From Nitzschia sp. DOCU1 (lineage: Eukaryota; Bacillariophyta; Bacillariophyceae; Bacillariales; Bacillariaceae): a stretch of 64,000 nt of DNA. The notes beneath the pieces were generated by a model, which did no database searches, was not told the DNA's origin, and worked only from the letters and a program-made list of their open reading frames with translations. Position numbers and translations under genes: made by a program. Positions 50,966-63,940 of this stretch are shown here, one piece after another. The stretch is taken from positions 2,013,534 to 2,077,533 of the forward strand of contig OX595986.1 in NCBI GenBank assembly GCA_951394045.1, written 5' to 3'. Position 1 is the stretch's first letter; every line of letters begins with the position of its first letter.

Positions 50966-51439
50966 GGTGACTGAAGAATGAATGTGATGTGCTAACGAAA
51001 CGGTGTGTATTTGCAGCAACGAAAGAAGACAAGCAACGACGTCGAGCTATGCTGCTATCTTGGTCCATCTACGATACTTCGAGCAAAAGCTGTTCTTCAA
51101 GCAGAAGCAGAAGCAGAAGCAGGGGAGGGGACCAACCGCAAAAAGTGAGGATGACGTCTTTCGCAGTGGTGGTGGCGGGAGGCGCGACCTGGAATTAGTC
51201 GATCTGGTCAATTCTGTGGAGTGGTGCTTGTTTTCTGTGCGAGAAAATAGTGACCGAATTCCTCTTAAATCACAATGTTCTTCAATAAAAGCGTTAGAAT
51301 CAGGCGAAGGCTGATTTTATATTCGCTTTTATTCGGTAAATATGGTCACAAAATCAAAGATTTTCTCAAACGCAATCCGCATCAACGGATACATGCACCC
51401 ATCGCCATCGACGACGTGTATTGTTGCTTCGAAACAATA
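50966..51439. promoter_or_regulatory. Divergent region with AGAAGC repeat
   Basis: About 470 bp between the fibrillin and galactokinase genes. A GCAGAA hexamer repeat lies at 51101-51123. An in-frame ATG at 51275 would extend the galactokinase by 55 residues, but this segment is more likely 5' UTR. Confidence 0.4.
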
Positions 51440-52822
51440 ATGGCACCGCCCATCCTCTCATTTCTTCCTCTAGTTGTGGCAAGTCTCATCTTGCTAACCT
51501 CCCCGGCTGCTTGCTTTACCGCCACGATGCCCTCTGAAGCCATGAAAGCAAAGTTGAAAGATGCTTCTCAGCTCTTTCGAGACAATTTTGGGTCGGCGAT
51601 GATGGACCCTTCGTATATTGCAGTTGCGCCTGGTCGTGTCAATCTGATCGGAGAGCACGTGGATTACACCGGTGGCTTTGTCTTGCCCTTTGCCATTGAA
51701 TACTCCACTGTGTGCCTAGGGACGGGCCGTGTCAACAAGCCCTCGGGCGCACCAGGGCCTCGGGCCGTTCTCCAGTTTGCTAGCACAATGTCACCAAAAG
51801 ATGTCGCTAAAGTGACGATTGACGCACAGTCGAAGCCACCCGAGAATGTGTCATGGAAGACATATGTGGTGGGAACAGTCTTTCAGTACCTGGCAGATCT
51901 CCCTTCTGATGCAGAGTTGGAATTGACCTTTTGCATTAGTGGGGATGTCCCTCTGGGGTCTGGCCTGTCGAGCAGCGCGTCATTGGAAGTGGCAGTGGCC
52001 CGTTTCGTGGAATCCATCATGGGTGATGATGTAGCCTTTTCGTCGTGTTCTCCAAGTGAACCACGCGCAAAGCTTCGGGCGTTGCGATGCCAAAAAGCAG
52101 AGAACGAATGGGCCAGATCTCCGTGTGGATTGATGGATCAGTACATTTCCAGTGCAGGCCAAGAAGGATCTTTGTTGTTGATCGATTGTACGTCTCTGGA
52201 GTACCAAGAAACGAAAATGGCAACTACTGCCAGTCAACCTGTTTTAGTTGTCGCCAACTCGAATGTGAAACACGACATTGGCGGGGGAGAATATCCAGTG
52301 AGAGTGCGTCAGTGCAAAACTGCCACGGAAGCCTTACAAAAGGTAAATCCCAAGATTACCAGTCTACGAGATGCCACTCTAGAAGATGTCATGGCCGCAA
52401 AGGACCAAATGGACGACGAAACTAGTTTTATGCGCGCCAGACATGTAGTGACAGAAAACGTCCGAACTCTAAAAGCCAAAGAGGCATTGGAAGCCGGAAA
52501 TTGGAAGCTTGTGGGAGAGCTTATGAGTGCAAGTCATGCCAGCATGCGAGACGACTACGAAGTAAGCTGCGAAGAAATTGATATTTTGGTCGACATTGCT
52601 ATGAACCACCGCGGGGTGTACGGAAGCCGACTTACAGGAGGAGGCTTTGGCGGGTGCACCGTCACATTGGTGGACAAACCACAAGCAGCCGACTTGATCA
52701 AAACGCTCCAGAAAGAGTACAAGGCCCGAACCGGCAAGGATTGCTTTTGCTTCGAAACCAAAGCAGCCATGGGTGCACACACCCTGCCAATTGACACATT
52801 GAAAACCTTGTCGTCGTCATAG
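51440..52822 (+). CDS. Galactokinase (GHMP kinase) with signal peptide
   Basis: Phosphorylates galactose at C1 with ATP, the first step of the Leloir pathway. A single exon of 460 residues from the ATG at 51440. Signatures: the galactokinase motif GRVNLIGEHVDYTGG (about 63-77), the GHMP ATP loop GDVPLGSGLSSSASLEVA, then ENEWARSPCGLMDQYISSAG and the C-terminal LTGGGFGGCTVTL. Galactose recognition by the GEHxDY motif is intact. The first 25 residues are a hydrophobic signal peptide (FLPLVVASLILLTSPAA) followed by CFTA, so the enzyme may enter the ER and possibly the plastid; galactokinases are usually cytosolic. A longer form from the in-frame ATG at 51275 would bury this signal. Location is uncertain. 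Confidence 0.92.
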   Translation: MAPPILSFLPLVVASLILLTSPAACFTATMPSEAMKAKLKDASQLFRDNFGSAMMDPSYIAVAPGRVNLIGEHVDYTGGFVLPFAIEYSTVCLGTGRVNKPSGAPGPRAVLQFASTMSPKDVAKVTIDAQSKPPENVSWKTYVVGTVFQYLADLPSDAELELTFCISGDVPLGSGLSSSASLEVAVARFVESIMGDDVAFSSCSPSEPRAKLRALRCQKAENEWARSPCGLMDQYISSAGQEGSLLLIDCTSLEYQETKMATTASQPVLVVANSNVKHDIGGGEYPVRVRQCKTATEALQKVNPKITSLRDATLEDVMAAKDQMDDETSFMRARHVVTENVRTLKAKEALEAGNWKLVGELMSASHASMRDDYEVSCEEIDILVDIAMNHRGVYGSRLTGGGFGGCTVTLVDKPQAADLIKTLQKEYKARTGKDCFCFETKAAMGAHTLPIDTLKTLSSS

Positions 52823-52869: not shown

Positions 52870-54099
52870 CTATTGCTGGGGTACTACAAGGAGCTCACGA
52901 AACTGTAAAATTATACGAGCAGCATGTTCGAGGGCTTGATCACGGGGTACACTAGGAGCAGGTGCCTGAGAGTGCCCATTTTCATCAACAATCTCTTTCT
53001 CTTCCCGTAGTTCACTAGTGGCAGAGCGAATCGCGTGTGAGAGCACATCTCGTTTCCATTCTAGAAAATGTGGAGGATACATTGCTAGCTCCCTTTTCCA
53101 TGATGATGTGAACCCCATAGTGGAGTCGCTGACTAAATCATCGTCTTGCAGTATGTCCATCATGTCCACGCGCTCTTGTACTTGTTCCAATAAGTCTTGT
53201 GCAAGTTTCGACGGTTTGTTGTCCTTGCCTCGTTTCGACGTAGTAGTAGATTTCGACAAGGACGATAATTGACTACTTTCGGCTCGTGCTGCCGGCACCT
53301 TTTTGGACAGGGGCTGCTCTATGGTACTGCCCTTACGCTTCTTGTTAGTGCTCGCAGCAGTTGAAATTGTCCTCTTTGCTGCTTTCTCCTTTTCTTCTTC
53401 CTCTTGTTGTCGTTGCTCCATGGTGTCTATCATGTTTTGAACGTGTTCCAGCACCGCGGCAAATTCACTTAGCGTAAAATCGGTAGACACATCCACGACT
53501 GTCGCGACGGATAGTTGCTTGTCATTTTCTCCATTGGTGGTGTCATTATTAATTCGCCCCATGTCTTGTTGTGTTGCCACGATATAAAAACACGCTGCCT
53601 CGTAGGTGCGGAAAAGGCGATCAATATCCTTGAGATAATCAGGTCTTTTGTGATAGAATCTTATGAGTTTGTGCAACAATCGTTGAGCACGAATGGCAGC
53701 TCCATTGGAGTCGGCAACGTAAGAACCGAGTTTCATGGCCAGTGATGGAATGGAGCTCTGGCGTCGTTGTTTGTCGTTGCTACTGTCCTTAGCTTGTGGT
53801 GGTTTGTATCGGAAATTTCCTACGTGGCTGTGAAACTTGACAAACTCCTTCTCCTTGGCAAAACACGCCTTTGCCAGCTTTTGCATGGAGAGTTTGAGAC
53901 CCTCTTGTTCGCGAGCAACATACTCCAACAAGGCGCCGGCTCGTCGCACTTGATTGTCACATTTTCCAAAGGTTCCTGGAGGGTTGTGAAGCTGAAATAT
54001 ACGCAATTCATTACGTGCTTTTTCCAAAATCTTGGCAGACAATGGAGGACTTTGTTTCAATCTATCAGCCACGCTGGAAACTGCATCATGACGGGGCAT
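52870..54099 (-). CDS. Helical basic protein, possibly ORC6-like
   Basis: A single-exon protein of 409 residues from the ATG at 54099 (the frame extends upstream only with a GTG start). Residues 10-100 are helical (DRLKQSPPLSAKILEKARNE, then RRAGALLEYVAREQ and LSMQKLAKACFAKEKEFVKF) and faintly recall the cyclin-like repeat of origin-recognition subunit ORC6. The middle (about 130-250) is helical, and residues 245-330 are Lys/Ser-rich with a nuclear-localisation look (NKKRKGS, SKRGKDNKPSK). The C-terminus has WKRELAMYPPHFLEWKRDV. The ORC6 suggestion is weak; otherwise the family is unknown. It converges on the galactokinase, 47 bp between stops. Confidence 0.6.
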   Translation of the reverse strand: MPRHDAVSSVADRLKQSPPLSAKILEKARNELRIFQLHNPPGTFGKCDNQVRRAGALLEYVAREQEGLKLSMQKLAKACFAKEKEFVKFHSHVGNFRYKPPQAKDSSNDKQRRQSSIPSLAMKLGSYVADSNGAAIRAQRLLHKLIRFYHKRPDYLKDIDRLFRTYEAACFYIVATQQDMGRINNDTTNGENDKQLSVATVVDVSTDFTLSEFAAVLEHVQNMIDTMEQRQQEEEEKEKAAKRTISTAASTNKKRKGSTIEQPLSKKVPAARAESSQLSSLSKSTTTSKRGKDNKPSKLAQDLLEQVQERVDMMDILQDDDLVSDSTMGFTSSWKRELAMYPPHFLEWKRDVLSHAIRSATSELREEKEIVDENGHSQAPAPSVPRDQALEHAARIILQFRELLVVPQQ

Positions 54100-54599
54100 G
54101 ATGATCAATGAGGGAACAGTGTATGAGTCGAGCGCTGTCTTGGATGATAGGCGCCGCACCTATTCTTTGTTTCACTGGCTGCTAGCTTTCTGTTGATGGT
54201 GTTGAGAGGACGCAGGTGGATGATTTGGGGCAATGACATGGCGTGGTTGCAGTTCGCGAGCACCAGTTTTGTGGTGTGATGAAAGCACGTACACAATTTT
54301 GGCGCGAACGTCCAAAGCTAGAGACATATATAGTCATCACATCAGGGTACTACTCAACATACCATAATTTTCGCATCGAGAAAAATAGCTAACAGTAGCA
54401 GTAAGTGAAATTCAAACACTGCGCCGTCCCCTCCTCGTCGTTTGTTGTTGTCTCCTTCGGGAATGGACAACAAAACAAACAAACAACAAGAACCGCCAGC
54501 AGCAGACCACAGTACTGTTCTTTGTGTTATTCGGTGCAACTTTTGAGACTGGACGACAGTGATTGACGACTCGATCCTTGTTGCTGTGTTTCGTCGACA
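54100..54599. promoter_or_regulatory. Divergent region before the kinesin gene
   Basis: About 500 bp with the promoters of the helical protein and the kinesin. Competing ORFs at 54354-54718 on the minus strand overlap the kinesin start and are shadows. Confidence 0.35.
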
Positions 54600-57500
54600 A
54601 TGACGGGTGGAAACAACGACTCCCGGGCAACGAGCTGCCAAGTCCGGGTAGGCGTCCGAGTGCGGCCGCTGGCATCGAAAGAAATCCAACAGGGGGGCAA
54701 GATGTGCTTGTCCATCAATCAGTCACAAAATTCGATCAGTATTGCCTCGCAAAATACATTTACCTACGATGCAGTCTTTGATTCGCAGACAGATCAAGAT
54801 AGTCTCTACCAAAGCGTCTCGTCATCTTTGCTGGAGAGCTTTGTCGAAGGCTACAATGCCACGGTACGTCTTGTTTCAAACGAATAATCACCCCACTGTC
54901 TCTCCGTTAATGTAGTCTCACTTTGTTCCATGAAACAGATTCTTGCATATGGTCAAACTAGTTCTGGCAAAACCTACACCATGGGAAGTGAGGCACATAC
55001 ACAGCCCGAAGGATCCTCCCAGGTAGGTTTGATCCCCCGTTTCATCTCGGACTTTTTTCAGCAGATGCATGTGAAAAAGCAGACGTCAGATGAGGCTGCA
55101 AAAACGTTCAAGGAAGGAGGGGACAGTCCTGTTTCCGAAGCCCCTTCGCCTCCGATTCTGCTGGATTATAGCATGAATGCCTCCTTTCTGGAAGTCTATG
55201 GGGAAGATGTGTATGATCTGCTAGATTCGGAGCGAAAATCCCTGCCTCTACGGGAGGATTCTGCAGGTGGCGTAGTCATTGCTGGCTTGAAGAGCAAATC
55301 AATTTCAAATCTGGCGGAGGCTTTGCACGTTCTGCACGAGGGCACCAACAATAGAACCACTGCTGCCACCCTCATGAACCTGACCTCGAGTCGATCGCAT
55401 GCCGTCTTTACGATCTATCTGACCCAAAAGACCAGGGGTCAAGATCAAGTAGACGTCGTCTCCACGTCCAAATTCACCTTTGTGGACCTGGCAGGAAGTG
55501 AACGTATGAAAAAGACGGGAGCAGAGGGCGAACGAGCAAGGGAAGGCATCAAAATCAACGAAGGTCTTCTAGCACTGGGAAACGTGATAAATGCATTGGC
55601 AGACGAAGAGCGTCTGGCAAAGGAAAGGACGATTCATGTTCCATATCGGCAATCAAAGTTGACGAGGCTTTTGCAGGATGCACTTGGTGGAAATAGCCAG
55701 ACGCTGTTCTTGGCATGTGTGTCACCTTCCGATACCAACGTTAGTGAAACATTATCGACGTTGCGGTATGCGAATCGTGCTCGTAATATTCGAAATGTCC
55801 CAACCAAAAATCTTGATGCTACTACGTCAGAGTTGCAGCGTTTGAACGTACTGACCCGTGTCCTTCAGTGTGAGTTGATAAAGGCTCGCTTTCAAGATGG
55901 TGGATCAAATGAAAACTTTGATACGACCAACATTGGGCACGTTGACGCTAATCTAGCGAAACGACCAGATGTGGAAGAGTACATGGAGCAAATTCACAAA
56001 ACTGCAAATGAACTATCTGGAGTCGATCAAGCCCCCAAGTACGCTTTCAAGCCTATCCCGTCGGCCGCAAACGTTTCCACCAGCTCCCTTCCCCCGAAAT
56101 TTCCCGTCAAAGTTGAAAGCTCTGTTTCGGCGCTGGAAGCTACCCCAAACAAATTTATTTCAGAACGCTTTGATGACTCCTTCCTTGTGGACGTGAATCC
56201 GGATGAAGACATTGCGATTCTGGACCGTCTTTTGGAATTGCAGCAACATGATGATGAGTTCGACAAGGAGCAGAAGCGCGATCATGAGAAACTTCGACGA
56301 GTTGATGGGGAACTACAGAAAGAGGAGGCTCTTCTGTTGCAACTTCGTGAAAGTCTAAAGGCGTATCACAGTCTGAAGAAGAAGTATGAGGAATTAATGG
56401 CGGAAGTACAACAGCTGGAGGCCGAAAAGGCAAGCCTGGCAGCGCAGTTGGAAAAGGCCACCGCCGATCCGTCAACCGGATGTTCCGCAGCAATCAAGAG
56501 GCAACTGGAAAAGGTAGAGCTTAGCCTAAACCGCGCGAGGAGGGAGACCCTGAGCCACCGACAAAAGTACAAAGCAGCAGAGGACCAGGCTCGCCGATGC
56601 CAAGTTCTCGAGCGCAAGATTTCTGACTTGAAACAAGCGAAAATCAATTTGCTTAAGAAACAAAAAGAAACTGCTGCCAGATACAAGGAAACCAGCGAGG
56701 CCAAAACCAAAGAACTTTTGGCTCTCAAAAGGAAGGAAAAGGCTGCAGACGCGAGACTTTCAAAAATGAAGACGGAGATCCAGCACCACAAGAGCAACCT
56801 CGAGAAACGAAAGCAATATTGCGACAAATTGACAGACAAGCTGAAGCAGACTGAGACGCATCTGATGAAGCTTCTTTCGATCCGGCAGAGAGACCTGGTG
56901 GAGCGAGCAAGTCTAGTTGGCAAGGGGGTTCTACCGTTGTCTGTGGACATTCTTTCCGATCAAGACGAGAATGTGCGAAACAAGGTTACGAAGGCAGAAC
57001 ATTTGTCAAGTGAAGATCTCAAGTCAATTCAATTTATCTTCGATAAGATGGTATCCGAGAAAATTGAGCAAGGAATTCTCATGTCTCAGTACAAGGAGCG
57101 AGTCGCTGAGTATAGCGAGACTATGCGGCTTGTAGTGGCAAATGTCAAGTTGCTCAAGGAGAAAGAAGCGATGGCTTTCGACGATGATTTACACGACGAT
57201 GTGTCTGATCTGAAGGAGACGATTGCCGATTTGGAGTTGAAATTGGAGCTTCTTGGTGCAGAGGTGAAAGAAATGGAATCTCTCCTGCCGGACGAGGTGA
57301 AGCGAGTGCGCGAGGAGGAGGCCGTCAAGAAGCTTATGAGCAAGATGCCGGCCGTTGCGTTGCGGAAGATGTTGTTTGATTTTTTCTCGAAAATGGTAGA
57401 AGCCGAGGTAAGCATTGCATTTTGTTCACTTATTGGGCATTGGAGTGCCCAATCTCATGTTGAAATGTCGGCTGTGCAATACCTTGCAGACTGAACGAAG

Positions 57501-59994
57501 GTCAAACAGTGAAATGGTCCGGCGGAAGGATGCGGCTCTCTCGAGCATTGAGAACGAATTAGATTTGTTACACGGCAAAGTTGAGTCTCTTACACGAGAC
57601 CTGGCGGAACGCCGAATCCTTATGGAGTCGGGCGAAGATTTGCTTGGAAATTTAAAGCTTGCCGAGGAGAAGAATATTGCCTTGCAATCGGAATTGAGTT
57701 CTGTGCAGGATCAAGTTACCATGTCAAAGGAAAGACTCGAAGAATTGGAAGGCATTGTTGAATCGCAAAAGCTAGAACTCGAGAACACAAAGGACTGCCT
57801 TGTTCTAACTGAGACTTCGCTGTCGAAATTGAAGGGTTCAGTGGAGTCTGAAGTGACATTGAAAGAACTTCAAGAAATATGGAAATGCTTGGGCGTAGAC
57901 TCCGAGACCAGAGAGAAGATTCGCAACGAAATCAGGTACTGCGTATCCGATACGTGCCAGAGGCACCTCGACGAGGCGACTGAGCTGAAAGCTTTCACGG
58001 AGGAAGAAGTGAATGAATTAAGAGCAAAGAAGGTTTCTATGCAGGCTGCACTAAGAATCCAGGAACAAAATCCACTTCGGGGACTGGCTCTTTTGGAAGA
58101 AGCAAAGATCTTGCGCCAGCAGGTTGGGGCACTTGAGGCGTCGTTCAATTCTAGCAACAGTCGACGAGAAAGGATTATTTCCGACATGGTTGGTTTGTCG
58201 GCGGCCCTCGGGATCTCCAAGCATGAATTACCTGGAAACCTCCAAACTCTCATGCATCAGATCGAGGAAGTCCAGGCTACTGGCACGAGCCTGGGACGAT
58301 TGCGTCGCGCATCCATGATGGAAAACGTGCAAGCTATCGTCGATTCAATCAGCAGTAATTTTGCTGATCCCGAGACTTTCAAGGCGGCAAAACCGTCTCA
58401 AGATGAACTTACTTTGCCTCCAGGTAGCCTGGAGGAAGAATTTTTATCGCGCTGTGAGGCCGACATTGCAGACCTGAGAGTTCGGAAATCCGAACTGCTG
58501 GTTCAAAACCGTGAATGCCTGCAAAGAATCAGTGGCCTAGTTCGAGATTTGCACTCCCGTGCTCCCGAGCTGGTTGAGTTAGTTGAAATGACGTTGAAGT
58601 CTCAGACCAATGGCATTCCAATCTGGTGGGATAGGGAACGGGCGACCGATCTTTTGAAGCACGTGTCAGCATCGCCTGCTCGAGTGGACAGTGAAGCTAC
58701 TGAAACAAAGTATATTGAAACTATCGTCAACGCACTCTCGGTGGTTGCGAGGTCTCGCGAGAAGATCTCAACCGTCCTTCGTGGCATTGTTGAGAAGGCT
58801 CAGCAGACGCTGCTAGATATCGTTGGTCGAGAACTAGACGCAAGCGAGGCCTATGCCAGCTTTCATGAGGCTCTTTTGAAATTACCGATTCTTTCAGTGG
58901 ATTTTAGCCATGCCTGCATCTCAGAAATGGAAGCGCTGGTGCATGGAGTTGAGGCAATGATGCAAAGTGAGATTGAAGCCTTGACAGTCGTATGGGAGGC
59001 TCTGAAGGTATCCTCGAGCGAGCGCAGGGTGTTTTGGGGAAGAATCGACAACCCTGACTCTTCTGAGATGGAAAATGGAAATCCTTTTGACAACATCTTG
59101 GGATGTTTGACGGACAATGTGGAAGCATGGATCGACTCAATCATCACCAAGGGGCGGCAAGTCAATGAGGAGCTTGAGTCAAAACTCTCTAAACTCGATT
59201 CCATTCACAAGGAAGTCGAACGACTGCGATCGAAGCAAGACACCAAAAGTCAAGTGCTTTCGCTGGACTCGGAGATCCGCATCTTGAATTCAAGACTGCT
59301 CGATTTCGAGGAACTTCAATGCAGTAAGCAACGACTCCTCACCAAAAAGTCCGGGAGCACAGCCCTACTCAAAGAAGCGCGTTTCAGAAAGCAGATGAAG
59401 GCGAAATTCGTCGCAAAACTTGGACAACTGGCTTCACTCCTCCGCTCCTGGGAGCAAGAGGAAGGCTGCGCCTTCAACGCATCACTATTGAGTGATGATG
59501 TCCGCATGCTATTGAACGAGCCGGACAAGATGGAAGATTGGATAGAGAAGCGGACCAAGCTCATGCCATCGCGAACAGTGCCTACAATGACTCCACGCAA
59601 ACGATCACTCGATGAGGGAAAGCAGGCGAGAGTGCCATCCAGCCGCGTCGACGCTTCAAGCTCAGCAAGGCAATCCACCCGTACAGCGTCTGGTTTGACG
59701 CCACCGAGAAAAAAGCAGGCAACTTCAGCAAGGCAGCATCAGCCAAAATCATTGAAGGATGCCGACGCACTTCTCCCTTCCGCAGGTTCAAAGGCAAAAC
59801 GATCCCCAGTGCGCAAGCGGAAGCCTACTGCTGAGTCTACCGAGAACAAGCCTCGGCAGACACCAGAATCAAACGTCGATTCCCCTGCCAAGAAACGTTC
59901 TTCAAAGCCACGAAGAAAAGAATCGGCTGCCTTGCCACCGTTTGGTCGTATTCTGTCAGAAATTTCGTCCCCTGATGCAAAGGGGACGAGATGA
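54600..59994 (+). CDS. Kinesin-4 motor fused to PRC1/MAP65-like crosslinker
   Basis: Exons 54600-54863, 54939-57407 and 57490-59994 (75- and 82-nt introns, all phase 0); 1,745 residues. The N-terminal motor (about 14-385) has P-loop GQTSSGKT (93-100), switch I SSRSH (238-242), DLAGSE (271-276), VPYRQSKLTRLLQDALGGNS and TLRYANRARNIRN, closest to kinesin-4/KIF4. A coiled coil spans about 460-1030. Then a PRC1/MAP65/Ase1 region: LKELQEIWKCLGVDSETREK (1035-1054, cf. LREIWELIGIPEDQR of PRC1), a helical rod, then LLKEARFRKQMKAK and LLRSWEQEEGCAF (about 1538-1571, cf. ELWEQEHSKAF). The basic tail has several S/T-P sites (TPRKRS, TPPRKK, SPVRKRK). Likely acts on antiparallel spindle microtubules; that role is inference. 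Confidence 0.9.
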
Positions 59995-60085: not shown

Positions 60086-61573
60086 TCAGACATCCTTGTT
60101 TAGCCAGAGGACAAGAACGCACACGTTGTCTGCCGACCCTCGCTCTAGGGCCTCATTAGCGACAATCCTTGCCATGCTCTTCCGTTTGTCAGTTTTAGCG
60201 TCGGTATCTGTCGTCATGACTTCATGCACAAAATCCACAACTTCTTGGCTTGTCATGACGTCCCATAGGCCGTCGCTGGCTAAAACAACAAACTCATCGA
60301 CCCCCTCCCGAACGGGAAAAGTCATGATTTCAGCTTCACTCGTGACGACTGGCTTTGCAAATCTATCACCGACTGCCCGAGAGAGCGACAGATCTCTAAC
60401 TCGATACACTTGACCGTAAGGATCCCACTCCACCTCTTCGCCCATTGCACGGATTCTGTCCATTTCTCGCTCGTCGCTTGGCTTGTGATCCCTTGTCAGA
60501 TCCACCGCCTTTTTGCCTCGGGATAAGATCGCCCGACTGTCTCCAATATTCGCCGATAAAAGCGTCCGTCTGCCGTCTTTAGCAACATGGAGCACAACAC
60601 AAACAGCCGTACTTCCTTGGTACACAAGCTCGTCCAATTTTAACACCGCCTCTTCAACTTGTTCCAACCCTCTTTGTAGAGCGGCAATATGACTCGATTT
60701 GGATGGGATCTGCTTTCGTTCGACACCGAATTCATTCTGTTGCTCCCAGTGCTTTTTGGCTAGTTCCTCACAGTACAGATCGTAAAGGCGATCCCGAAGA
60801 ATTGTGCTTACCTCCGCTCCGCCATGGCCATCGAATACAGCCACGAATCGACCACCATTCTCTACAACATATGTATCCTCCATGGTCCATCTAGCCCCTT
60901 GGAAGATTCCTTTCGACACCTAAGACAAGGAAAAGAAGAGTTAGGGGGCTGTAAAGACGCCAGCATCTACACCATTCGCCAGTTCAGTGCTTACGAGATA
61001 AGGGTCCTTTTTTGCTTCTTCTTTGACTTTCTTTACATCTTCTTCGGCTTTTAATTTGCTGAATAGAAACATGGGCTTTGTCTTTTTGGGAGGACCTATC
61101 CCTCCTCCCTGAAACTTCGCAGAGGCATTCGGCCCCGAAGAGGCAGCATGACTGCTCGATGCTGTAGTAGTAGCTGAGGCAAGAAAACAAAGAGCAAATG
61201 CCACCAAGGCAGAGAGCTGCTTTCTCGAGGTAGAGTTGACATCGTCACAATTTTCTAGGCTACCGGCCCGCCGCCTAAGATATTCTAGCCAAGGTGCAGT
61301 TATCGTCGGTGGCTCCAAAAGTGCTGCTCGGTTCTTGCGGAGCAGAGAATCCGAAGAGACTCTTCTAAGAGAGGAGATCGATCGATGCGAAGAATACGAG
61401 GACGACGGCGAAGCTGCCCACGCTGGTGCTCTCATGGCTGCTGCATTGTTGTTTGGAGAGTGACCATTCAATGCGAGGGGTGGATTCAGTGCAAGGGTTC
61501 TGGTTTTACGTGCTCGACAGGAAGAGCTTGCGACCAAACGAGTCGAACTGGAAACACAACAAGATGCCGCCAT
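60086..61573 (-). CDS. PP2C-type Ser/Thr phosphatase
   Basis: A Mg/Mn-dependent PPM phosphatase. Exons 60971-61573 and 60086-60919. The 51-nt intron is the shortest in the window, has a CTAAC branch-like motif, and joins LANG to VSKGIFQGARWTMED; 478 residues. Catalytic motifs are complete: RWTMEDTYVV, FDGHGGAE, GSTAVCVVL, ANIGDSRAIL, TRDHKPSDERE, LSRAVGDRFAKPVVTSEAEI, ASDGLWDVMTSQEVVDFV and GSADNVCVLVL. The roughly 200-residue N-terminal extension is Ser/Ala-rich with one hydrophobic stretch (LSALVAFALCFLASATTTASS), which may be an internal anchor or mark a later true start. Substrates are unknown. The gene is tail-to-tail with the kinesin, 91 bp between stops. Confidence 0.9.
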
Positions 61574-62161
61574 GGTACCAGATACTTCAGTGGTGCAAAA
61601 TCAGTAAGGTTGTGGATCAGGACACTCCGATTGCAATTAGAAGGAGGATCTTCTCGTTGGACCCCTCCCTTCTGCGCCATATTCTTGGATGCTATTTCAT
61701 GTTCTGCTGCTTGACACGTTCGACGAGGTCGGGAGGGTTCTTCGCGGCGGGAAGAAGCGCAAGCTCGGTGCCAGAAGATATCCTTGTCACGAGCGAAGGC
61801 AAGGCGGTTTGTTTCAGATCATCAGTAGTGAAGAATTTCATCATGATGTTCATGTGGAAGTAGTCGGAGTGACTGTCGCACTCCAAATTTGCGCCTGCAT
61901 TGATTTCCCGCCTAATTCATCGTCCAATGGTCAGGACCAGCTCTCGGAGGGGCGGCATCCAACGGTCGGACTCCGTGTCGTTGCCACCAAGACAACTACT
62001 AAAATGCTCTCAAGGTCGAATCGAATCAAGCTCCCTTTCGCACATTCAGCCAGTGTTCCGGTTTCGTCTCGCCCAACTAATTTCCTGGAACACAAGTTGC
62101 AGCTGGTGCTAGCTACTAGTAATACGTTATCATCGTCTTGGGCACAAGCAGCTTTATCACC
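61574..62161. promoter_or_regulatory. Divergent region, PP2C / TLDc genes
   Basis: About 590 bp between divergent genes. Long plus ORFs (61426-61863, 61689-62297) cross it but show no recognisable protein and start with non-ATG codons or inside the PP2C gene. I see no convincing separate gene. Confidence 0.35.
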
Positions 62162-63940
62162 ATGTCGTGTATGGCACCGAAGATCCCAAAGGACGAGGAG
62201 GGCACGCCCCGCAATTTCGACAACTCCATGCGGAACAATAATGTTGCTGGCGGAAATAATGGGGCCCCACTTCAGGCCGCCCGTAGAGGCCTATTAAAGG
62301 CAATGTGGCAAGCCTCCTTTGCTCCCCGATTTTCCAGTAAGCCGATCGACATGCAGGACTACTTTTCACGCGAGTCCTTTGCGGACCCCAGTCGTAATTT
62401 GAAGATGTTCTCTTCGTTTACGATGGATGGTAACAACAGTGTCGACGAAGATGGCGGAAACAGAAGTCCTCCCTCCAGTGAAAGGGAAAGCGAGGTTAGG
62501 CCATCACTGGTCACAGCCAAGAATCTAACGCCATTCGAGGAGATGTTTCTGCAGAATCTTTTGCAATCTGAAGATTTAGATTCCATTCGGAGGGCCAGCG
62601 AGCGTTTGGCAGACAAAGAACTTTTCCCGCCCATGATGACTCCGGAAGAGACAGCGGAAAGTGAAATGTCATCGTCGTCGACTCGTGTCCACCGTCGAAG
62701 AGGGTCGGAAGTTCAGCAGGAGCTCTTTCGGTTGCACGAAAGTACTACCGTCAAGCCTAAAACGGTATTGAGACGGATGAGCACCGTGGAAAAAGAAAAA
62801 CGAGCCAAGGCGAGAGCCAAGCTTGTAACAGCAACTGCCTCGACACCGCTGATTCCAACACTTCCACATAACAACTCGATTACGGCCCAGCCGTATGAAG
62901 AGACTTCTGCTCGAAGCAATAATCCTCCCAAGGCGCCAGTGGTCCCGGAAGACGGAGAATATCATGGGAGAGGGGGTTCGTGGGATATGAAATCAGATCC
63001 CGGTATCGAAGAAGACAAGAAGGAAGACGAACAGGATGGGCACCAACATGGTGATGCTTCTTGGAATCCTTTTGGTGACGTAAATTCTTGGATTGACGGC
63101 AACCAAGGTGTGGAAGTTGACGGAGACGGAATCCCAGACATTCCTTCGCCAACCTCGAATCCATTTAAGATTCTAGGGACTTCGGCCGATGATGTCTCGG
63201 CTCATCCTCATGTGTTGACTCCACCCCTTATGGAAGGCCTCCAAGAATTCATGCCTGAATCCTTGCACGAATATCACTTTTGGCTCAAGTATTCTCTTGT
63301 TCGAGATTCTTCCAGATCGCCGCATCCCACAACCCCTCCTTTATTTGATATGCTACGACATTGCCGGGCATCGCTGTACACTGTATTGGCTATTGAAACA
63401 ACAAGCGGACATGTGTTCGGTGCGTTTTGCTCGCAACCTTGGAAGCTGAACGGTGAAAAATATTGGGGAACGAAGGATTCGTTTGTCTGGAGAATGCGAC
63501 ATTCCCGGAACGAGCCTTGTGAATCCATTGTTGAGCAAGTCCTTATGGAAAGTAAGATCGACGTGTTCCCTTTTACGGGTCGCAACAAGAATGTCCAACA
63601 ATGCTCCCAAGAGCACGGTTTAGTACTGGGGGAAGGGGAAGTATCTGACTTCCAACAGGGAGAAGGAGAACATTTTGGCCATGCCATTCAACTTAACGCG
63701 GCCATGACCGAGGCGTGGACGAGCTCGACAGAAACCTTTGGAAACCCTAGTTTGGTGCACACGGACTTACGTGGCGAGAAGGTCGATATTGCCAATGTCG
63801 AATTGTGGGCTTTGACGCCACACAGTTCAATTGAGTCGGCGATCACGCTGGAGATGAAGCAATTGTTCCTGGCAGAGAATCGAGGCCCAACAGAGAAGAA
63901 TCTTGATTTGTTGGAAATCTTGGTGGGAGGGACTGTATAG
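62162..63940 (+). CDS. TLDc-domain protein
   Basis: A single-exon protein of 592 residues from the ATG at 62162; an upstream in-frame start at 62138 is TTG. The first 350 residues are disordered and charged, with short conserved-looking helices (LTPFEEMFLQNLLQSEDLDS). The C-terminus (about 365-575) is a TLDc domain: HCRASLYTVLAIETTSGHVF then GAFCSQPW, EKYWGTKDSFVW, VFPFTGRNKNVQQC, the Gly-rich GLVLGEGE, SSTETFGNPSLV and IANVELWAL. TLDc proteins (OXR1, NCOA7, TLDC2 and TBC1D24 in animals) are linked to oxidative-stress resistance and V-ATPase regulation. A role on an acidic organelle is possible but inferred. No membrane segment or signal is seen. Confidence 0.88.
   Translation: MSCMAPKIPKDEEGTPRNFDNSMRNNNVAGGNNGAPLQAARRGLLKAMWQASFAPRFSSKPIDMQDYFSRESFADPSRNLKMFSSFTMDGNNSVDEDGGNRSPPSSERESEVRPSLVTAKNLTPFEEMFLQNLLQSEDLDSIRRASERLADKELFPPMMTPEETAESEMSSSSTRVHRRRGSEVQQELFRLHESTTVKPKTVLRRMSTVEKEKRAKARAKLVTATASTPLIPTLPHNNSITAQPYEETSARSNNPPKAPVVPEDGEYHGRGGSWDMKSDPGIEEDKKEDEQDGHQHGDASWNPFGDVNSWIDGNQGVEVDGDGIPDIPSPTSNPFKILGTSADDVSAHPHVLTPPLMEGLQEFMPESLHEYHFWLKYSLVRDSSRSPHPTTPPLFDMLRHCRASLYTVLAIETTSGHVFGAFCSQPWKLNGEKYWGTKDSFVWRMRHSRNEPCESIVEQVLMESKIDVFPFTGRNKNVQQCSQEHGLVLGEGEVSDFQQGEGEHFGHAIQLNAAMTEAWTSSTETFGNPSLVHTDLRGEKVDIANVELWALTPHSSIESAITLEMKQLFLAENRGPTEKNLDLLEILVGGTV

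What the first reader, a model, noticed from the sequence alone, without database searches (positions are those of the whole stretch)
54600..59994. Kinesin-4 motor and PRC1/MAP65 crosslinker in one protein
In animals KIF4A is recruited by PRC1 to antiparallel microtubule overlaps in the spindle midzone, and the two are separate proteins. Here one three-exon gene, with phase-0 introns that keep the frame open, encodes a kinesin-4-like motor, a coiled coil and a region matching both ends of PRC1/MAP65. The N-terminal block is LKELQEIWKCLGVDSETREK and the C-terminal spectrin/tail block is LLKEARFRKQMKAK with SWEQEEGCAF. Diatoms are known for an exceptionally ordered central spindle, so a built-in motor-crosslinker would be a neat solution. 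I do not know of a described fusion of this kind.
Basis: partly seen in the sequence, partly recalled or inferred. Interest (0 to 1): 0.93.

Follow-up and report, generated by a model that had tools for sequence, protein, structure and literature searches.

The report
Diatom motor-crosslinker fusion protein
This gene, from what looks like a diatom, joins in one protein a microtubule motor (kinesin-4) and a divergent relative of the spindle crosslinker PRC1/MAP65, which are separate proteins in animals; the same joined gene occurs in other diatoms and in their close algal relative Triparma, so it gives a testable candidate for what drives the diatom spindle.

Summary
Three exons (54600-54863, 54939-57407, 57490-59994) encode 1745 aa: a kinesin-4 motor, the KIF21A_4th stalk domain, and a C-terminal half that is a divergent PRC1/MAP65 homologue. 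The MAP65 match of the window's protein alone is weak (E 9.9e-5, below Pfam's cut-off), but 30 of 35 exon-3 homologues match MAP65_ASE1 (best 1.7e-12) while every other Pfam family matches 1 of 35, and the four best Foldseek PDB matches of the predicted fold are PRC1 chains. It is one gene: of 60 homologous proteins from the two length-suited searches, 46 carry the motor motif and this tail in one chain, among them Nitzschia, Seminavis, Fistulifera, Epithemia, Thalassiosira, Extubocellulus and the bolidophyte Triparma, some transcriptome-derived. The same genome also holds a separate kinesin-4 and a canonical stand-alone MAP65, so the fusion is an addition, not a replacement. The join lies where animal KIF4A's tail docks on PRC1's N-terminus; the likeliest function, untested, is a motor permanently tethered to an antiparallel-microtubule crosslinker. 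My paper searches listed no description of it. Limits: the four centric/Triparma members I scanned singly give no MAP65 Pfam hit; the MAP65 identity rests on raphid-diatom-like homologues plus shared descent.

The parts
54600..54863 (+). exon 1, residues 1-88 (start of motor domain)
   Evidence: splice junction gapless against 7 of 9 full-length homologues (P0039 does not reach it, P0040 has 7 extra residues)
54864..54938 (+). intron 1, GT..AG, 75 nt, phase 0, in-frame stop
54939..57407 (+). exon 2, residues 89-911 (rest of motor, stalk)
54657..55790 (+). kinesin motor domain, residues 20-372 (interrupted by intron 1); P-loop GQTSSGKT, NLTSSRSH, DLAGSE present
   Evidence: PF00225 E 2.4e-104; nearest solved structure KIF4 3zfd E 7.9e-69; motif names recalled
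56238..56738 (+). KIF21A_4th stalk domain, residues 522-688
   Evidence: PF25764 E 7.6e-10
57408..57489 (+). intron 2, GT..AG, 82 nt, phase 0
   Evidence: junction gapless in 8 of 9 homologues
57490..59994 (+). exon 3, residues 912-1745 and stop
   Evidence: only copy in the genome
57841..59562 (+). PRC1/MAP65-like rod, about residues 1029-1602: dimerisation-like N-terminal block, rod, spectrin-like block
59332..59451 (+). block aligned to the PRC1 microtubule-binding helices (residues 1526-1565; R1526, K1530, K1531, K1539, R1542 conserved in 33-35 of 35 rows)
   Evidence: alignment to PRC1 (weak); VIA-align match to microtubule-bound PRC1 5kmg. That these PRC1 positions contact tubulin is recalled
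59560..59991 (+). C-terminal tail predicted disordered, rich in K, R, S, P
   Evidence: pLDDT below 50 for nearly all of exon-3 residues 691-834

Best explanation
The gene makes one protein: a kinesin-4 motor whose coiled-coil stalk runs directly into the N-terminus of a divergent PRC1/MAP65 crosslinker. Shown: the gene structure, the family membership of the motor, the PRC1/MAP65 relationship of the C-terminal half, the single-chain architecture in other diatoms and Triparma, and the presence of separate kinesin-4 and MAP65 genes in this genome. Inferred: the protein dimerises through stalk and MAP65 block, the MAP65 half binds and crosslinks antiparallel microtubules, and the motor walks on one of them towards the plus end, so that sliding, stalling or length control of overlaps is done by a permanently coupled motor and crosslinker. 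In animals the same coupling is a transient bond between KIF4A's C-terminus and PRC1's N-terminus; the fusion point lies at the same ends. The most likely place of action is the overlap zone of the central spindle.
Confidence: 0.75

Rival explanations
1. A true fusion, but the MAP65-like half has lost antiparallel crosslinking and is only a second microtubule-binding or cargo-positioning tail; the canonical MAP65 does the crosslinking and the fusion is an ordinary kinesin-4 with a targeting tail.
For: Canonical stand-alone MAP65 is kept; the fused half is far more divergent (E 9.9e-5 against 2.3e-66); Triparma and Thalassiosira members have no MAP65 Pfam hit.
Against: PRC1-like fold over the whole length including the dimerisation-like end and strong conservation of the basic block.
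Confidence: 0.17
2. The resemblance to PRC1/MAP65 is convergence among long helical, spectrin-like, coiled-coil proteins; the tail is an unrelated ochrophyte kinesin-4 tail.
For: Weak pairwise scores; coiled-coil constructs outrank PRC1 with the deeper profile; helical folds give middling matches to many proteins.
Against: Of the Pfam families matched by the 35 homologues only MAP65_ASE1 recurs (30 of 35); the profile of the tail hits the genome's MAP65 and not its other coiled-coil kinesin; Foldseek's four best are PRC1, with a gap in E-value to rank 5 (0.0011 to 0.17).
Confidence: 0.06
3. Two adjacent genes (a kinesin-4 and a MAP65-like gene) joined only in the gene model.
For: No cDNA of this organism was available.
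Against: 46 of 60 homologues hold both in one chain, including transcriptome-derived P0039, P0058 and P0096 (source labels eukprot/mmetsp); gapless exon 2/3 junction in 8 of 9.
Confidence: 0.02

Closest known systems
KIF4A/PRC1 (Kinesin-4 and Ase1/PRC1/MAP65) midzone complex of animals
   Same: The same two kinds of protein; the motor's C-terminal side meets the crosslinker's N-terminus (passages of PMC6200392 and PMC10620760).
   Different: There two proteins that bind reversibly (Kd 0.3 uM in PMC6200392); here one chain. KIF4A's DNA-binding tail was not looked for and no Pfam model for it was matched.
Stand-alone kinesin-4 of the same genome (G000:C3, L036:4499-7288, minus strand)
   Same: Kinesin (3.4e-79) and KIF21A_4th (2.4e-13); best solved match KIF4.
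   Different: No MAP65 hit in it or in the next open frame and no match of the fusion-tail profile; its complete gene model was not worked out.
Canonical MAP65 of the same genome (G000:C4, L001:1327-3261, minus strand)
   Same: MAP65_ASE1, and a reciprocal profile hit with the fused half.
   Different: Stand-alone, 644-aa ORF, MAP65_ASE1 E 2.3e-66; no motor.
Database entries such as Fistulifera solaris 'kinesin family member 4/21/27', Nitzschia inconspicua 'kinesin motor domain containing protein'
   Same: The same architecture and tail.
   Different: The names given by the sources mention the kinesin only; for some other entries the database's precomputed Pfam list already holds both PF00225 and PF03999.

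Membership tests
Kinesin-4 (KIF4/KIF21/KIF7/KIF27) | kinesin motor domain with intact nucleotide motifs | tested here: met
   PF00225 E 2.4e-104; GQTSSGKT, SSRSH, DLAGSE in the translation (motif meaning recalled)
Kinesin-4 (KIF4/KIF21/KIF7/KIF27) | closest to KIF4 among solved motors, and KIF21A-type stalk domain | tested here: met
   3zfd/3zfc KIF4 best of 156 (60 shown), KIF7 next among vertebrate motors; PF25764 7.6e-10
Kinesin-4 (KIF4/KIF21/KIF7/KIF27) | groups with kinesin-4 in a motor tree | tested here: inconclusive
   26 rows, no outside references: fusions form one clade (95/95) that joins the genome's stand-alone kinesin-4 with support 80/40 only
Ase1/PRC1/MAP65 | match to MAP65_ASE1 above the curated cut-off | tested here: inconclusive
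   window's protein 21.7 to 25.5 of 26.9 bits in hmmscan, 37.8 with neighbours in the six-frame search; P0039 27.7 bits, above; 30 of 35 homologues at E <= 0.01
Ase1/PRC1/MAP65 | PRC1-like fold along the whole chain | tested here: met
Ase1/PRC1/MAP65 | conserved basic microtubule-binding block LLKEE..R | tested here: met
   R1526 35/35, K1530 34/35, K1531 33/35, K1539 34/35, R1542 33/35
Ase1/PRC1/MAP65 | homodimer that prefers antiparallel microtubules | not testable with these tools
   needs protein

The most novel reading that the evidence does not exclude
Before diatoms and Parmales parted, a kinesin-4 was fused covalently to an Ase1/PRC1 crosslinker, giving a single-chain sliding or length-control motor for antiparallel microtubules. 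In diatoms this is a main component of the kinesin-anchoring midzone matrix and one of the motors behind central-spindle elongation, alongside ordinary MAP65 and kinesin-4.
Probability: 0.4. Interest if true: 0.9.

Novelty: new variant of a known kind. Interest (0 to 1): 0.78.

Why it matters
The diatom central spindle is a classic system for anaphase B; a 2016 review says that a pan-kinesin antibody blocks its elongation in vitro, that one of the sliding kinesins presumably drives it, and that it is tempting to think its kinesin-anchoring matrix holds Ase1p (PMC5192431, passages and section 8.1 seen). A protein that is motor and Ase1-type crosslinker at once is a direct, taggable candidate. 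It also shows that the KIF4A-PRC1 partnership was hard-wired into one chain in a lineage far from animals, which fits functional coupling of the two families and offers a natural construct for testing what reversible binding contributes.

Tried and rejected
Single-sequence PDB search of exon 3: no PRC1, only an SMC coiled coil at E 0.18. Viral contigs with A1: 22 stretches matched a pattern, none encodes a relative. hhalign of A1 or A3 against the genome's MAP65: only 54.7 and 33.5% probability over 100 columns. Deeper alignment A3 made the PDB result worse, because stalk columns bring in coiled coils. Two-gene artefact: rejected, see rivals. Replacement of stand-alone KIF4/PRC1: rejected for this genome. 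The weak third KIF21A_4th match at G000:C8 (25.9 bits, under the cut-off) was fetched (L037) and only run against the tail profile (no hit). A PRC1 residue-number paper search (K387, R377) gave one irrelevant listing. The broad kinesin survey PMC2867816 was seen as passages only: its main text has no MAP65, ASE1, PRC1, diatom, Thalassiosira or Phaeodactylum, but its tables of 105 architectures are supplements that I could not open, so an entry there is not excluded.

The claim that the fusion is not described rests, of which several were long lists seen only at the top (92, 170, 895 papers with 20, 20, 12 listed); one search had its underscore dropped by the tool and found 0. Subscription papers and preprints are not in that library.

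Full report
What is there. Between 54600 and 59994 the window holds a three-exon gene with GT..AG introns of 75 and 82 nt, both in phase 0, whose spliced product has 1745 residues. Pfam finds Kinesin (E 2.4e-104, 20-372), KIF21A_4th (7.6e-10, 522-688) and MAP65_ASE1 (9.9e-5, best stretch 1034-1491, 21.7 bits against a cut-off of 26.9); from the MAP65-like part alone the match is 6.8e-6. The nearest solved motor is KIF4 (E 7.9e-69).

Results against. hhalign with the genome's MAP65 gives 54.7% and 33.5%; with the deeper alignment A3 coiled-coil constructs outrank PRC1; two Triparma, one Thalassiosira and one MMETSP member have no MAP65 hit at E <= 1; 16 of 27 full-length fusions have none at E <= 0.01 on the whole protein.

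Is it one gene? Two searches with full-length queries restricted to the tail (so that proteins of full length could be found) gave 34 and 42 hits, together 60 new proteins P0039-P0098. All 98 proteins P0001-P0098 match the tail profile; 46, all among those 60, have the motor motif DLAGSE in front of it, 38 of them also the P-loop pattern, 3 more have only the end of a motor, and 11 of 60 have none, as expected of partial or intron-split predictions. Named ones with motor and tail: Nitzschia sp. Nitz4, N. inconspicua, Seminavis robusta, Fistulifera solaris, Epithemia clementina, Extubocellulus spinifer (taxid 265572), Thalassiosira sp. AJA248-18, a Bacillariaceae MAG, Triparma verrucosa and T. 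pacifica (taxid 91992, Bolidophyceae). P0039 is labelled Kryptoperidinium foliaceum, a dinoflagellate; that its source is the diatom endosymbiont of this alga is recalled, and fits its 87% motor identity to the window. P0039, P0058 and P0096 are labelled as transcriptome-derived. The exon 2/3 junction is gapless in 8 of 9 full-length homologues compared, the exon 1/2 junction in 7 of 9. Identity to the Triparma proteins is 58-59% in the motor, 37-38% in the stalk and 38% in the MAP65-like part, so tail and motor have been inherited together. In a motor tree of 26 rows the fusions form one clade (95/95), with the two Triparma rows together (93/75); the link to the stand-alone kinesin-4 is weak (80/40).

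The rest of the set in this genome. G000 (52.08 Mb, 63 contigs) has two MAP65 loci: the fusion and a canonical one on C4 (E 2.2e-65). KIF21A_4th gives three matches: the fusion, a kinesin-4 on C3, and a weak one on C8. The C3 gene has Kinesin and KIF21A_4th and no MAP65 hit. Exon 3 occurs once. So the fusion was added to, and did not replace, the usual pair.

How it most likely works. In animals KIF4A's C-terminus binds PRC1's N-terminus (Kd 0.3 uM), KIF4A alone does not crosslink, and PRC1-tethered KIF4A slides antiparallel microtubules until it stalls (PMC6200392, passages); Kif4A and CENP-E use hydrophobic motifs that bind PRC1 residues 1-168, with I25, W26, M54, E57, E58 implicated (PMC10620760, passages). 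In the fusion the stalk coil (model helix 51-113 of exon 3) is followed after four residues by the helix that corresponds to PRC1's N-terminus (118-134), so the same ends are joined. The tryptophan equivalent to W26 is invariant (35 of 35), the E57 position is E in 25 of 35, the M54 and E58 positions are changed (equivalences read by me from the alignment). The basic block equivalent to PRC1's microtubule-binding helices is nearly invariant; that R377, R381, K387, K390 of PRC1 are the contacts is recalled. I infer a dimeric molecule with a motor pair and two crosslinking arms that stays coupled while it slides or caps overlaps.

What is known. Databases already list both Pfam domains for some of these proteins, but the source names mention kinesin only. 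None of my paper listings describes a kinesin-MAP65 fusion (searches named under Tried and rejected). PMC5192431 (passages and section 8.1) describes the near-crystalline diatom central spindle, its kinesin-dependent elongation, and the guess that its kinesin-anchoring matrix holds Ase1p. I rate it a new variant of a known kind: known motor, known crosslinker, new covalent architecture conserved over a large clade.

Noticed in passing
G000:C3 (L036:4499-7288, minus strand): A second, stand-alone kinesin-4 gene without MAP65 tail in the same genome.
   Followed up: partly
G000:C4 (L001:1327-3261, minus strand): Canonical stand-alone MAP65/Ase1 gene (MAP65_ASE1 E 2.3e-66) in the same genome.
   Followed up: partly
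G000:C14 (L007) and G000:C4 (L009): Two kinesin motors that are nearly identical in the tree (branches 0.0076 and 0.014), perhaps a recent duplication.
   Followed up: no
P0028 and P0046: One Bacillariaceae MAG lists two different proteins with this tail (SGILL_000358, 723 aa; SGILL_001299, 1589 aa), so some diatoms, or a mixed MAG, may have two copies.
   Followed up: no
P0039: A fusion transcript labelled Kryptoperidinium foliaceum, a dinoflagellate; probably from its diatom endosymbiont (recalled), which would mean that the endosymbiont still expresses a spindle-type gene.
   Followed up: no
60086-60919 minus, 51269-52822 plus, 62123-63940 plus: Neighbouring frames: PP2C phosphatase (E 7e-49), galactokinase-like GHMP kinase (1.2e-18), TLDc domain (5.5e-18); the frame 52870-54102 minus has no Pfam match at E <= 0.001.
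   Followed up: partly
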